This document shows positions 28,592-34,333 of a stretch of 64,000 nt of DNA, one piece after another (the stretch's first letter is position 1; each line of letters starts with the position of its first letter). Position numbers and translations under genes: made by a program. The notes under the pieces were generated by a model. That model made no database searches. It was not told where the DNA came from and saw nothing but the letters and a program-made list of their open reading frames with translations. Source of the DNA: Flavobacteriales bacterium (GTDB lineage: Bacteria > Bacteroidota > Bacteroidia > Flavobacteriales_D > Crocinitomicaceae); contig VEQH01000001.1 in NCBI GenBank assembly GCA_018883325.1, positions 105,986-169,985 of the forward strand. Reading direction: 5' to 3'.

Positions 28592-29278
28592 ATGTTTGCT
28601 GATCAAGTGATTTATGAAGACAATCATGTTATTGTAGTAAATAAACGTGCATCTGATATTGTTCAAGGAGACAAAACTGGAGACAGAACACTTCCTGATG
28701 AAATTAAAGATTATTTAAAAGAAAAGTACGACAAACCTGGAAATGTTTTTTGTGGAGTGGTTCACCGTTTGGACAGACCTACAAGCGGTGCAGTTGTTTT
28801 CGCTCGAACAAGCAAAGGTTTAGAACGATTAAATGCACAATTTCGCGACAAGGAAACGAATAAAGTGTATTGGGCGATTGTAGAAAATTTACCAGAAAAT
28901 ACAGAAGGCAAGCTTGTTCATTACTTGAAAAAGAATGAAAATCAAAATAAAAGTTATGTTTCAAAAGCAGCAGTTGTTGGTGCAAAAGAAGCAAAACTGA
29001 AATACAAATTGATTGCCTCCTCCGACCGCTATCATTTATTGGAAATTGAATTAGAAACAGGTCGTCACCATCAAATTCGTGCGCAATTGGCACGCATTGG
29101 CTGTTACATTAAAGGCGACGTAAAATACGGAGCAAAACGACCAAATGAAGATGGTTCTATCTGTTTACACGCTCGAAAATTATCATTTAACCACCCTACA
29201 ACAAAAGAACTTTTGCAGTTCGTTGCGCCTTGTCCGTCAGATGCTATTTGGCAGTTTTTTGAGAAGATTGTTGGGTAG
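28592..29278 (+). CDS. RluA family pseudouridine synthase
   Basis: The 228 residues match the RluA family of enzymes that convert uridine to pseudouridine in rRNA or tRNA. The catalytic-aspartate motif HRLDRPTSGAVVFARTS begins near residue 58, and the ELETGRHHQIRAQLA motif is present. The S4 domain of larger RluC/D proteins is missing, as in short RluA-type members. It follows ccsBA by 2 bases and is probably co-transcribed. The exact RNA target is not predictable. The 234 bases after it are AT-rich and show no gene. Confidence 0.92.
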   Translation: MFADQVIYEDNHVIVVNKRASDIVQGDKTGDRTLPDEIKDYLKEKYDKPGNVFCGVVHRLDRPTSGAVVFARTSKGLERLNAQFRDKETNKVYWAIVENLPENTEGKLVHYLKKNENQNKSYVSKAAVVGAKEAKLKYKLIASSDRYHLLEIELETGRHHQIRAQLARIGCYIKGDVKYGAKRPNEDGSICLHARKLSFNHPTTKELLQFVAPCPSDAIWQFFEKIVG

Positions 29279-29512
29279 AAGGTTGTAAAATCAAAATTCT
29301 AACATTAGGTTAGTGATAAAAATTTTTAAATTGCATTACTTACTTTTTTTCATATTTAATAAAATTTCATCATTTGACTAGATATCTAAAATGAAAGATT
29401 ATCTTTGAAAAAATCCTTGTCTACAAATTTTAAGTGAATAAAAAGAAATTTCTTTATCAATTAAATTGATATTAAACTTAGGTTTTAGAGTCTGGCATTT
29501 AAAATTAACAGA

Positions 29513-30121
29513 ATGAATTTCAAACTAATTCTTTTTATTTTAATCTCTTTTGGGATATCGTCAACTTCATTTTCACAAGATTATGAAACATACAATTCTG
29601 GCTCAAATAATTGTTTGACAATAAAAATTCCAACTACTTGGACAATTTATGATGACGACTGGAATAACTATATGAAGAAAACATTTAGTCCAGAAAGTCA
29701 AAGAGTAACAATAATAAGAGCATCTGATTATGATATTTCAACATTTTATTTTAAAATTTCATACATAAATATGGGCAAAAAATACAAAAAAGAAGAAATA
29801 TCCTCAGATAATTTTGATCTACTAAATAATTATAATGCTTCATTATTAGATGTGATTAAACAATTAAAAAGTTCTGGAAATACAATAATATCGAATAAAA
29901 AATCAGAATTTGTTTCTATTGACAAAGCTTATGGTTGCTACTATTCATATACCTATACAAATTCCAATGAACAAACAAGAACTTCTGAAATATATTACGT
30001 AATTGTTGGTCAAACAGGTTACTTCATAACCATTTCTTGGAATGTTGAAAATAGTTCTAAACCAGAAACAATTAAATCAAAACTAATATCAAATTTAAAA
30101 TTATGTGACTTATTTAACTAA
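29513..30121 (+). CDS. secreted protein of unknown function, first gene of the accessory cassette
   Basis: The 202 residues start with a signal peptide (core about 4-19, cut after TSFSQ). The mature part is rich in Ser, Tyr and Asn and contains the phrase LTIKIPTTWTIYDDDWNNY, which loosely recalls Mog1/PsbP-like folds (a beta-sandwich opening with an IP..W segment); this is only an impression. Codon use is strongly AT-biased, like the next three genes, and the gap to the next gene is 17 bases. I do not recognise a family. Confidence 0.65.
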   Translation: MNFKLILFILISFGISSTSFSQDYETYNSGSNNCLTIKIPTTWTIYDDDWNNYMKKTFSPESQRVTIIRASDYDISTFYFKISYINMGKKYKKEEISSDNFDLLNNYNASLLDVIKQLKSSGNTIISNKKSEFVSIDKAYGCYYSYTYTNSNEQTRTSEIYYVIVGQTGYFITISWNVENSSKPETIKSKLISNLKLCDLFN

Positions 30122-30138
30122 AAATATAAAACTAAAAT

Positions 30139-30294
30139 ATGCAAGTACTAAATTTAATAATATTAAATACTCAAACAAATCCAGAAGTTAGACTCTTAGG
30201 TTTTTTCATTGCTATGATTATTCTCTTTATTTATTGGAGTAAAAAAAAAGAGAAAAACAATGATGAAAACAATGATGAAAACAATGATGTGTAA
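30139..30294 (+). CDS. 51-residue single-pass membrane microprotein
   Basis: ATG 30139 to TAA 30294 encodes 51 residues: a hydrophilic N-terminus (MQVLNLIILNTQTNPEVR), one membrane helix (LLGFFIAMIILFIYW) and a charged tail with KKKEK followed by a repeated ENND unit. The tail comes from a direct 12-base repeat (AATGATGAAAAC, two copies plus a partial). The gene sits 17 bases after the secreted-protein gene and 11 before the nuclease-like gene, in a tight same-strand series, which supports its being real. Positive-inside charge places the tail in the cytoplasm. Confidence 0.6.
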   Translation: MQVLNLIILNTQTNPEVRLLGFFIAMIILFIYWSKKKEKNNDENNDENNDV

Positions 30295-30305
30295 AAAAAA
30301 ATAAT

Positions 30306-31934
30306 ATGTTAACAGCAATTATTGTGAGTGGTTTTGCTTTTATTGTTGCACAAATAATAATGAGTTTTGGTAAAAATAAAAATGAAGATAAAACTAAAAT
30401 AAAATCCGATAATTATAATTTAAGAAGAAAAGAAGAAAATTATCAATTAAATGTTGACGAAAAATATGATTTAAATAAAATAGAAGAAGAAGAAGAAGAA
30501 GTTGATAAAGACAAAAAAACAAAAAAAATCATAGATGTTACTAAAGTATATACAACAGAATCATTAATTTCAGATGAAATCAAGGGTAGTGAAATAATAT
30601 CTATGAAAGCAATTAAAGTAGATGATATTTTAATGCTTAATCCAAAAATAACATTTCAGGATGCAGAGGAAGAAAATCAAAACAAATTAAAATTTATTGG
30701 TTATGAACCTTCTACAAAATTTGAACAAAAAGTACCATTAAATTATCCAATGGTATTTATGCCAAAAAGTGGTAGCGTTATTAAATACCCTAGAAAAGGG
30801 AAACAAGGTTTAAAGGGTTTTACTGAGAATTTATTTAAAAAAAGTATTCTTGAAAATTTTAATAACTTATTTCAAATTTATGATGATAGATTTGTCTTGT
30901 ATAAATCAAATCAAAATCCATTTGAACCAGATTTTACATTAATTGACGAAACTAATGACATTAACCTATTTATTGACATTGAAATAGATGAACCTTATGA
31001 TGGTATATCACGACAACCAATTCACTTTATGGGTTTTGATAAACAAAGAAATTCTTTTTTCAAAAATCGGGGATGGATTGTTATAAGGTTCGCTGAATAT
31101 CAGGTATTTAAAGAAACAATGAGTTGTTGTAAATTTATAGCAGAAGTTATAAATTCTGTTAATCCAAATTTTACTATTTCTGAAAAACTTTCTAAAATAA
31201 AAGATATTGGAACAATAAAACAATGGACAAAAGGACAATCAATTAAATGGGCAATAGAAAAATATCGTGAAAAATACTTAGGAATAAATGAATTTGAAAA
31301 ACATTTCAACAATGTTATTTTACTAAAGCTAAACGAAACTGAAATCGGTAGTGAAATTGAAAATTATGTAATAGAAGATCAAACAAATAGTATTAAAAAT
31401 AAAAAAACATTGATTGATTTTGCAATAAATCATAATGGTTTTATTTCTTTAAAAACTTCAGGCAAATACTCTATTATTAAACCAAATAAAATCGAAAACT
31501 CAATTTTATTTGGTTTTTGTTATCTAAAAAATTTGGAAGTAAAATACGATATTAACAAATTAAATGATATCGTATTCAGAGAAAAACCATTTTTAATTAA
31601 AATTAATGGAGTAACAGAAAGAAAAGACATTAAATCATTTATAATCAAATATATAGGAAGTAAAAATCCAATTAGAATAAAATATGCAAAAAGTACATAT
31701 AGGTTAAACATTAGTTATGGAGAAACAGGTGAAATTATATTATCAGAAGATGAAAGAGATAGTTTGAGAACAATTACAAATTTTGATTTTGTTTCTCGAG
31801 TTTACTCATTTGATAAGATTAAACAATATAAATTAAATGATGAGGATTACATTTCGGGATTTTGTAATTCTAAACAGGAACTACGTACCTTTAAATTTGA
31901 TAGGATAAAAGACTTAGAAATATTGAATATTTAA
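30306..31934 (+). CDS. membrane-anchored PD-(D/E)XK nuclease-like protein with WYL-like repeats
   Basis: The 542 residues begin with a membrane helix (about 2-20), then a charged linker (about 23-75). Residues 170-290 resemble a DUF559/REase-like PD-(D/E)XK fold: FEPDF (206-210), then a strand IDIEIDEP (223-230) giving D209, E226 and D228, and a later RGWIVIRFAE strand (255-264). Residues about 365-425 and 440-540 look like two tandem WYL-type barrels, the second ending EDYISGFCNSKQELRTFKFD then RIKDLEIL. WYL domains often sense ligands in defence and DNA-damage regulators. The combination, with a membrane anchor and a J-domain neighbour, is unfamiliar to me. Fold assignments are by eye. Confidence 0.65.
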   Translation: MLTAIIVSGFAFIVAQIIMSFGKNKNEDKTKIKSDNYNLRRKEENYQLNVDEKYDLNKIEEEEEEVDKDKKTKKIIDVTKVYTTESLISDEIKGSEIISMKAIKVDDILMLNPKITFQDAEEENQNKLKFIGYEPSTKFEQKVPLNYPMVFMPKSGSVIKYPRKGKQGLKGFTENLFKKSILENFNNLFQIYDDRFVLYKSNQNPFEPDFTLIDETNDINLFIDIEIDEPYDGISRQPIHFMGFDKQRNSFFKNRGWIVIRFAEYQVFKETMSCCKFIAEVINSVNPNFTISEKLSKIKDIGTIKQWTKGQSIKWAIEKYREKYLGINEFEKHFNNVILLKLNETEIGSEIENYVIEDQTNSIKNKKTLIDFAINHNGFISLKTSGKYSIIKPNKIENSILFGFCYLKNLEVKYDINKLNDIVFREKPFLIKINGVTERKDIKSFIIKYIGSKNPIRIKYAKSTYRLNISYGETGEIILSEDERDSLRTITNFDFVSRVYSFDKIKQYKLNDEDYISGFCNSKQELRTFKFDRIKDLEILNI

Positions 31935-31958
31935 AGGTCTTAAATAAATTAAAAAAAA

Positions 31959-32477
31959 ATGAAAGATTATTACAAAATATTGAAAATTGATTGCAAAGCC
32001 ACTGAAAGAGATATTAAAAAAGCTTATAGGAATTTAGCTATGAAATGGCATCCAGACATTAATAAAAATCCTTCTGCTCATTCAATTTTTATTGAAATTA
32101 ACGAAGCATATGAAATTCTTATTAATCCAAAAAAAAGAGCTGAATATGACTTGATATTTTCTGAAAAACAACATACAAACACTTCAAATGAATTTAAATC
32201 TTGGCAGGAAGAAGCTCAAAAAAAAGCAAACTCTTACGCTACAATGACAATTGAAGATTTTAAAAATAAAATTATCATGGAAATTAAACTTGTTGGTAGT
32301 TATAGTGCTTCATTTGGGTGTTTTATTTTTCTAATATTTGGAATTATTATTAATCTTTCGGCTGTTTCTATTCTTGGACCTTCTGTTTTAGTTAGTGTTG
32401 TTGTATTTATAATTGTTGCTATATGGCTGTATAACAAATCTTTAAAAGACTACTTTGAAGAAAGAAGAAAACTCTAA
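31959..32477 (+). CDS. membrane J-domain (DnaJ-like) protein
   Basis: The 172 residues start with a complete J domain (about 2-67: [20 protein letters not shown], the HPD motif at 31-33, then [10 protein letters not shown]). It lacks the Gly/Phe and zinc regions of true DnaJ. A short linker is followed by two membrane helices (about 116-138 and 140-158) and a charged tail. The J domain would recruit an Hsp70 (DnaK) to the membrane. It lies 24 bases after the nuclease-like gene and ends the four-gene cassette. Confidence 0.85.
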
Positions 32478-32777
32478 TTGATTAAGCACATAATAACTAA
32501 ATCCAAACAAAGAATTATTAAATTCAAAATCTTCAAAAAATAAAATCAACGATTATAAATTAGTGGTCTTAGAATTAAAAAATATTAACTTGATATATAA
32601 AGCTAAGCTGTTGAACAAAATATTTTTAAATTTGGGTAATATATTTTATCGAAGGTGTTAAGGTATTAATGATGGTTAAAATTTTAGCTATTTAGATTAT
32701 TTAGTATTTACAAAAAATCAAATCAATTTCTTAATTTCAACTTAAAAACTTAGCTTTGTATAAGTAATATTTATTCT
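32478..32777 (+). promoter_or_regulatory. AT-rich gap with promoter of the YoeB module
   Basis: These 300 bases hold no gene I can support. Near the right end TAGCTTTG (32751-32758) is an exact match to the Bacteroidota -7 form and lies 19 bases before the antitoxin ATG. No convincing -33 box, terminator or repeat is visible in the rest. Confidence 0.5.
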
Positions 32778-32993
32778 ATGGCTACCATTAAATTAAAAAT
32801 CAATGAACGAACTGGCAAAGGAAAAGAATTCATGCAGTTTTTAAAAGAATTCTTAAAAGATGATAAGTCTATTGAAATTCTTGAAGAAAAATCTCCTTAT
32901 AATCCAGAATTTGTAAAAATGGTTAAAAAATCAGCAGCGAGTAAAAAAAGATACAGCGTTGATAATGTTGATGACCTATGGGAAAGTTTGTAG
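32778..32993 (+). CDS. antitoxin partner of the YoeB-type toxin
   Basis: The 71 residues are small and lysine-rich and overlap the toxin gene by 16 bases, the standard antitoxin-first layout. The sequence (ATIKLKINERTGKGKEFMQF; SPYNPEFVKMVKKSAASKKR) does not look like the usual YefM/Phd antitoxin; it resembles the small DUF2683-like antitoxins found in Bacteroidota. The N-terminal strand and following helix could form a ribbon-helix DNA-binding region and the C-terminal part would wrap the toxin. The family is inferred from position. Confidence 0.78.
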   Translation: MATIKLKINERTGKGKEFMQFLKEFLKDDKSIEILEEKSPYNPEFVKMVKKSAASKKRYSVDNVDDLWESL

Positions 32994-33259
32994 TAGTTTT
33001 AACAGAAAAGGCGAAAAATGACATTTCACTCCACAAACGCTCTGGAAATAAAGCAATTGAAAGAAAAATAAAAACTTTTCTTGAAGAATTAAAAGTACAT
33101 CCATTTACAGGAACGGGTCAGCCTGAATCGCTCAAGCATGAACTTCAAGGTTTTTGGTCACGAAGATTGAACCAAAAAGATAGAATGATTTATTCAGTTG
33201 ACAAAGAAATTGTAACCGTTGAAGTTGTTTCAGCAATGGGACATTATTTTGATAAATAA
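32978..33259 (+). CDS. yoeB: YoeB/Txe-type toxin (ribosome-dependent mRNA endonuclease)
   Basis: The 93 residues follow the Txe/YoeB pattern closely: LTEKAKNDISLHKRSGNKAI, then LEELKVHPFTGTGQPESLKH, FWSRRLNQKDRMIYSVD and the C-terminal SAMGHY. The catalytic residues expected for YoeB (the first glutamate region, the RR pair, and the terminal His and Tyr) are in place, so the toxin looks intact. It would cleave mRNA in the ribosome when freed from its partner. Confidence 0.9.
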   Translation: MGKFVVVLTEKAKNDISLHKRSGNKAIERKIKTFLEELKVHPFTGTGQPESLKHELQGFWSRRLNQKDRMIYSVDKEIVTVEVVSAMGHYFDK

Positions 33260-33270
33260 CTTTTGCAACA

Positions 33271-33473
33271 CTTCCCCTATTTTCTATAAACGATTATCTC
33301 TGTTTTGATGGAAAAACAATTTATTCTTGATGCCAAACATTTGGAACTTACATTGAAGCGACTTTCCCATGAATTGATTGAATCCCATAATGATTTTTTA
33401 GATACAGTTTTTGTTGGTTTACAACCATATGGAATTCAAATTGTTGCTTGATTAAAAGAAAATCTAGAAGAAA
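33271..33473 (+). repeat. direct repeat copy 1: promoter and 5' end of pyrR (decayed)
   Basis: This 203-base segment aligns without gaps to 34131-34333 (constant offset of 860) with about 28 mismatches by hand count, near 86% identity. It covers the pyrR promoter region and the first 55 codons. Alignment is lost abruptly at 33474. Confidence 0.9.
33308..33473 (+). pseudogene. truncated, nonsense-bearing 5' copy of pyrR
   Basis: The frame starts with ATG and reads MEKQFILDAKHLELTLKRLS and on, very like PyrR at 34168, but codon 48 is TGA (33449-33451) where the intact gene has CGT, and homology stops at 33473. It lacks the PRPP-binding and catalytic parts. Changes include PYG for the conserved PRG segment, as expected after loss of selection. 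The -7 box is TATCTCTG, one base off the TATCTTTG of the intact copy. Confidence 0.9.
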
Positions 33474-34130: not shown

Positions 34131-34333
34131 CTTCCCCTATTTTCCAAAAACAATTATCTTTGCTGTGATGGAAAAACAAGTTATTCTCAATGCCAAACAT
34201 TTGGAACTTACATTGAAGCGACTTTCCCATGAATTGATTGAATCCCACAATGATTTTTCGGACACCGTTCTTGTTGGTTTACAGCCTCGAGGAATACATG
34301 TTGTCGCTCGTTTGAAAGAAATTCTAGAAGAAA
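34131..34333 (+). repeat. direct repeat copy 2: promoter and 5' end of intact pyrR
   Basis: This is the functional partner of 33271-33473. The segment contains CTTCCCCTATTTTC shared by both copies, the -7 box and the first 55 codons of pyrR. The 657 bases between the copies hold the MazF module. Confidence 0.9.
34155..34162 (+). promoter_or_regulatory. -7 promoter element of pyrRB
   Basis: TATCTTTG matches TAnnTTTG and ends 5 bases before the pyrR ATG, so the message is probably leaderless or nearly so. TTTTG at 34126-34130 could be the -33 element with a 24-base spacer. No room is left for a PyrR-type RNA attenuator. Confidence 0.55.

What the first reader, a model, noticed from the sequence alone, without database searches (positions are those of the whole stretch)
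29513..32477. Four-gene membrane cassette with a PD-(D/E)XK nuclease-like protein, WYL-like repeats and a J-domain partner
Four same-strand, tightly spaced AT-rich genes encode a secreted protein, a 51-residue membrane protein, a membrane-anchored protein combining a DUF559-like nuclease core (D209, E226, D228) with two WYL-like domains, and a two-helix membrane J-domain protein. WYL domains often sense ligands in phage-defence and SOS regulators. A nuclease tethered to the membrane next to an Hsp70 recruiter is not a system I recognise. It lies beside two toxin-antitoxin modules, as defence genes often do. The fold calls are seen by eye; the defence role is inference.
Basis: partly seen in the sequence, partly recalled or inferred. 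Interest (0 to 1): 0.78.

Follow-up and report, generated by a model that had tools for sequence, protein, structure and literature searches.

The report
Membrane-tethered nuclease gated by WYL sensors
A bacterium carries a compact, likely acquired four-gene cassette whose main protein joins a predicted DNA-cutting domain and two WYL sensor domains to a predicted membrane anchor; relatives of that protein in other bacteria sit beside known anti-phage systems, so it likely destroys invading DNA at the cell membrane.

Summary
Four same-strand genes, 11-24 nt apart, lie in 23.5% GC DNA that is absent from a close relative at the same rluA-pyrR site. The 542-residue protein has a predicted N-terminal membrane anchor, a DUF559-type PD-(D/E)XK core (E174, D209, E226, D228 in at least 119 of 120 homologues) and two WYL domains; the second keeps the basic pair that PafC uses for single-stranded DNA. 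The anchor is a family trait (109 of 120). All 10 WYL-type relatives whose neighbours I scanned have a defence gene within 4 kb: 8 a known system (Zorya, Argonaute, McrBC, type I restriction, AbiE), 2 a candidate only. The likely role is a membrane-tethered, WYL-gated nuclease that cuts invading DNA as it enters; it would work like SNIPE but is not a SNIPE. The four-part system is not supported: no relative's locus held the secreted or small J-domain protein, and the 51-residue protein resembles the family's own anchor. In a sister branch a second, RecB-like nuclease replaces the WYL pair. Activity, ligand and defence are untested. New variant of a known kind.

The parts
29275..32742 (+). stretch missing from close relative G003 at the same site; it holds exactly the four cassette genes
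   Evidence: blastn of the G003 rluA-pyrR spacer matches the window up to 29274 and again from 32743; GC 0.235
29513..30121 (+). 202-aa protein with a signal-like N-terminal hydrophobic segment, predicted secreted; not found beside relatives of the nuclease
   Evidence: no Pfam family; one partial homologue, 72% over 56%, on a 1.1-kb contig; absent from L020-L099
30139..30294 (+). 51-aa single-span membrane protein; likely a detached copy of the nuclease family's N-terminal anchor
   Evidence: 21 of 97 family N-termini score 8 bits or more against it, 0 of 60 control membrane N-termini do
30306..31934 (+). 542-aa protein: predicted membrane anchor, disordered linker, DUF559-type nuclease core, two WYL domains
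30306..30368 (+). predicted transmembrane helix, residues 1-21
   Evidence: hydropathy 2.32 over 19 residues; helix 2-21 in the model, residues 22-109 below pLDDT 50
30729..31340 (+). nuclease core region, residues 142-345; E174 codon at 30825, D209 at 30930, E226 at 30981, D228 at 30987
31377..31592 (+). first WYL domain, residues 358-429; lacks the basic pair
31653..31928 (+). second WYL domain, about residues 450-541; keeps R457, Y460, R527, F529, K530 and R533
   Evidence: Pfam WYL 513-539; aligned to PafC R201/R204 by HMMER; conservation
31959..32477 (+). 172-aa J-domain protein with two predicted C-terminal membrane helices; likely accessory
   Evidence: Pfam DnaJ 1.2e-24; hydrophobic segments at 109 and 137; nine full-length relatives

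Best explanation
The gene at 30306-31934 encodes a protein with a predicted membrane anchor, a DUF559-type PD-(D/E)XK nuclease fold and two WYL domains, which likely guards the inner face of the membrane and would cut invading DNA there once its second WYL domain binds single-stranded DNA. Shown by calls: the architecture and its conservation, the near-invariant acidic core residues and WYL basic residues, an anchor-like segment in most homologues, and defence genes beside relatives in other genomes. Inferred: catalytic activity, topology (short N-terminus outside, then a flexible linker of about 85 residues, enzyme in the cytoplasm), gating by the WYL pair, and the ligand. Proposed order of events: the tether keeps the enzyme off the chromosome; DNA that enters at the membrane, or that first-line cutters such as restriction enzymes, Zorya or Argonaute open, exposes single strands; binding in the WYL domain frees the core, which then cleaves the foreign DNA. 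The secreted and J-domain neighbours are probably accessories of this lineage.
Confidence: 0.5

Rival explanations
1. Same enzyme, other trigger: the WYL pair binds a nucleotide messenger, RNA or a phage protein at the injection site, and the nuclease acts on phage or on host DNA as an abortive effector.
Against: WYL2 keeps the very positions used for ssDNA in PafB and PafC.
Confidence: 0.27
2. The four genes form one system in which the membrane J-domain protein recruits Hsp70 to the nuclease, perhaps as a guard of a chaperone that phages need.
For: The four genes are tightly spaced and make up one stretch missing from G003. The defence protein bNACHT25 needs DnaJ to sense phage (PMC12169576, abstract).
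Against: Neither partner occurs in L020-L099. A search with the J protein's C-terminal 104 residues found only weak matches in 3 other genomes of 399 (order) and 7 others of 395 (class), none near-identical.
Confidence: 0.12
3. A DNA-repair or chromosome-maintenance nuclease attached to the membrane, with WYL sensing of DNA damage, unrelated to defence.
For: WYL proteins PafBC and DriD act in DNA damage responses (DriD from the abstract in the listing). In the same genus 8 soluble dual-nuclease cousins abut a gene that I read by eye as pyruvate kinase.
Against: WYL-type members are sporadic: in the order sample only this genome and G093 carry one; 10 of 10 scanned relatives lie by defence genes.
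Confidence: 0.1

Closest known systems
SNIPE (membrane-bound GIY-YIG nuclease with DUF4041)
   Same: single N-terminal membrane span, variable N-terminal region, cytoplasmic middle and a conserved nuclease; proposed to use location to spare the chromosome
   Different: here the nuclease is DUF559-type and precedes the sensor; WYL pair instead of DUF4041; no DUF4041 or GIY-YIG match
DUF559 / MTES_1575 PD-(D/E)XK endonuclease-like proteins (3hrl NGO0050; I-Bth0305I catalytic domain)
   Same: fold and conserved acidic core
   Different: here fused to an anchor and sensors; small proteins otherwise (recalled)
WYL regulators PafBC, BrxR, CapW, DriD
   Same: WYL fold and, in WYL2, the basic ligand positions
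   Different: no winged helix-turn-helix matched; output is a nuclease, not transcription
WYL-enzyme fusions listed in 2014 (Mrr-like REase, HNH, exonuclease, helicase)
   Same: WYL joined to a nucleic-acid enzyme (PMC4012209, passages)
   Different: that passage does not name a DUF559-type core or a membrane anchor
Zorya
   Same: membrane-based, proposed to cleave DNA at injection; two relatives, L068 and L079, sit beside Zorya genes
   Different: no ZorA/ZorB motor at this locus

Membership tests
PD-(D/E)XK nuclease, DUF559-type | sequence match to DUF559 | tested here: met
   56 of 58 cores at E<=0.05, best 1.5e-5; L033 and L018 at the curated cut-off; the window protein alone only 0.044 / 0.018
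PD-(D/E)XK nuclease, DUF559-type | fold | tested here: met
PD-(D/E)XK nuclease, DUF559-type | conserved acidic active-site residues | tested here: met
   E174, D209, E226, D228
PD-(D/E)XK nuclease, DUF559-type | metal-dependent DNase activity | not testable with these tools
   needs purified protein
WYL domain | Pfam WYL match and Sm-like barrel | tested here: met
WYL domain | conserved basic ligand residues | tested here: met
   met in WYL2, not in WYL1
WYL transcription regulators (BrxR/CapW/PafBC) | N-terminal winged helix-turn-helix | tested here: not met
   no HTH family among Pfam matches up to E 1; nuclease core and anchor instead
SNIPE | DUF4041 and GIY-YIG nuclease | tested here: not met
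   neither among Pfam matches up to E 1
SNIPE | N-terminal membrane span | tested here: met
   hydropathy only
Zorya | ZorA and ZorB genes in the locus | tested here: not met
   no PADLOC match at 1e-20 in 48 other window genes, nor in the four genes
   0 of 80 loci; metagenome contigs not scanned
J-domain protein | J domain with HPD | tested here: met

The most novel reading that the evidence does not exclude
A single-strand checkpoint at the membrane: a tethered nuclease that is switched on by ssDNA in its own WYL domains and so destroys DNA that enters, or is opened by first-line cutters, at the inner membrane. It would make WYL a direct allosteric switch of a DNase rather than of transcription, act as a second line behind restriction, Zorya or Argonaute, and define a Bacteroidota family with exchangeable back ends (WYL pair or RecB-like nuclease) and a choice between membrane anchor and helicase partner.
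Probability: 0.3. Interest if true: 0.82.

Novelty: new variant of a known kind. Interest (0 to 1): 0.62.

Why it matters
Few anti-phage nucleases are known to tell self from non-self by where they sit. A second, unrelated membrane-tethered nuclease family would show that tethering evolved more than once, and the WYL pair offers a direct test of whether ssDNA can gate a DNase at the membrane. The family is large (518 homologues scored) and its members sit in defence islands without a name in the libraries searched.

Tried and rejected
Rejected: a conserved four-gene system. A phage origin: no match in 50,697 phage records; 4 relatives, nuclease part only, in IMG/VR. Plasmid relatives: 42 records, none covering 80% of the query, nuclease part only, mostly cyanobacteria. 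A first genome-contig scan with the single sequence found nothing; the alignment scan found 288, of which 80 were kept. The viral-structure search gave no useful match. Terminal repeats of a transposon: none convincing at the cassette ends. The 202-aa protein's weak PADLOC MTase_II match (6.9e-6) is taken as chance, since no Pfam family matched. The 80 IMG/VR J-domain loci were not examined further; nearly all match only the J domain. 27 of the 29 other pyrR loci of the genus show no rluA within the 1.5 kb fetched, so the insertion comparison rests on two genomes.

Not in print, as far as searched: searches listed no paper describing a DUF559-WYL membrane protein; in the 15 papers listed the word DUF559 occurs nowhere. 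Subscription journals and preprints are largely not held.

Full report
What is there. The four genes are real and tightly spaced. The central protein has a hydrophobic helix at residues 1-21, a low-confidence stretch 22-109, a nuclease core and two WYL domains (mean pLDDT 76.1). The coding DNA is 23.5% GC against 34.5% for the rest of the window outside the island.

How it got there. In the two nearest genomes that show the site, pyrR is 97% and rluA 92% identical at protein level. G034 has about 110 nt between rluA and pyrR. G003 has the DUF2683-YoeB pair there (84% identical DNA to the window's) and nothing more. The window has, beyond that, 29275-32742, which is exactly the four-gene cassette, and a MazF module framed by a 203-nt direct repeat of the start of pyrR (33271-33473 and 34131-34333, 86% identical). 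Neither G034 nor G003 has a nuclease match elsewhere (one search lists all 11 genomes of 150 that match). So the cassette is likely one acquisition; its carrier is unknown. The other 27 pyrR loci fetched from the genus show no rluA nearby, so the comparison rests on two genomes.

The anchor. 109 of 120 homologues carry an N-terminal hydrophobic segment, median start 25; in 104 of 109 the charge pattern fits an outside N-terminus. Of the 11 without, at least three (P0076, P0093, P0104) begin inside the nuclease domain and P0025 is a shorter reading of L021, whose longer frame has the segment. A few members have a domain before the anchor (P0005, L078, L079), as SNIPE homologues have varied N-termini.

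The back ends. Grouping the C-terminal parts gave 54 proteins with a segment of about 275 residues and 11 with WYL, plus 3 singles (16 proteins lacked the motif used for cutting). The 275-residue segment matches PDDEXK_1 weakly (E 0.0034-0.09 in four of the five such proteins, none over the cut-off), and reads by eye as a RecB/Cas4-like nuclease. Among 59 proteins classed as RecB-like by a pattern, 30 have an anchor and 29 do not; an SF1 helicase gene (AAA_11/AAA_12) starts within 50 nt in 2 of the 30 and 19 of the 29. Some of the 29 are cut by contig ends. So anchor and helicase partner look like alternatives.

The company. I scanned neighbours of 10 WYL-type loci (L018, L020-L024, L033, L068, L078, L079; L025, cut 31 nt after the gene, was not scanned). 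Type I restriction: L018 (3 nt away), L020, L033, L068, L078. McrC: L022. AbiEi and AbiEii: L024. Zorya I (ZorA 5.4e-27, ZorB 2.4e-77, ZorC 1.7e-13, ZorD 3.7e-262), starting 49 nt after the gene: L068. Zorya II (ZorA, ZorB, ZorE), ending 0.9 kb before it: L079. Argonaute (1.1e-260), 12 nt before it: L078. Candidates PDC-S26 (L021) and PDC-S68 (L023) complete the ten. At E<=1e-20, 237 PADLOC models matched among 93 neighbours and none among 48 other genes of the window. The control is from one genome, and it also shows that the window's cassette does not lie in a defence island.

The partners. The J protein belongs to a small family of nine full-length relatives with no clear orthologue in the 398 other genomes of the order sample or the 394 others of the class sample (weak matches in 3 and 7). 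The 202-aa protein has one partial homologue. The 51-aa protein scores 8 bits or more against 21 of 97 family N-termini and 0 of 60 control membrane N-termini, so it is likely a detached anchor.

How it likely works, and what is known. A membrane-bound nuclease that cuts phage DNA at injection is established for SNIPE, where loss of the anchor made the enzyme toxic (PMC13190303, abstract, passages, Discussion). A review groups Zorya, Kiwa and SNIPE as membrane-localised DNA-targeting defences (PMC12904381, passages). The present family shares the plan but none of SNIPE's domains. The 2014 WYL survey already lists WYL joined to Mrr-like nucleases, so WYL-nuclease fusion as such is not new; the DUF559-type core, the anchor and the exchangeable back ends appear to be. 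Catalysis, gating, ligand and protection all remain to be tested.

The host. The window's genome shares its genus group with G074, whose first contig has the length of CAJJBU010000001.1, a Flavobacteriales UBA952 record; the taxonomy is inferred from that.

Noticed in passing
33271-33473 and 34131-34333: A MazF toxin module is framed by a 203-nt direct repeat (86%) of the pyrR promoter and start, leaving a pyrR 5' fragment (ORF 33305-33451) upstream and an intact pyrR downstream.
   Followed up: partly
32743-33259; L134: The DUF2683-YoeB pair is also present between rluA and pyrR in close relative G003, so it predates the cassette at this site.
   Followed up: yes
L011-L017 and L081: Eight soluble dual-nuclease cousins in the same genus overlap the end of a gene read by eye as pyruvate kinase; in seven a gene read by eye as riboflavin synthase follows.
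   Followed up: partly
L034, L036, L041, L042, L045 and others: Anchor-less dual nucleases lie 0-7 nt before an SF1 helicase gene, in several loci between genes that read by eye as type I restriction subunits; possibly an unnamed restriction-type system.
   Followed up: partly
L071:1216-3987: A dual nuclease with a metallo-beta-lactamase domain (Pfam 1.7e-22) in front.
   Followed up: no
L019:109-1743; L076:6321-6821: The same WYL type occurs at the end of a protein that reads by eye as a DnaQ-like exonuclease, and as a small separate protein near a dual nuclease.
   Followed up: no
L020:9804-11207: A 467-aa neighbour without any Pfam match (E<=0.01) or PADLOC match (E<=0.001) follows the WYL-type gene.
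   Followed up: no
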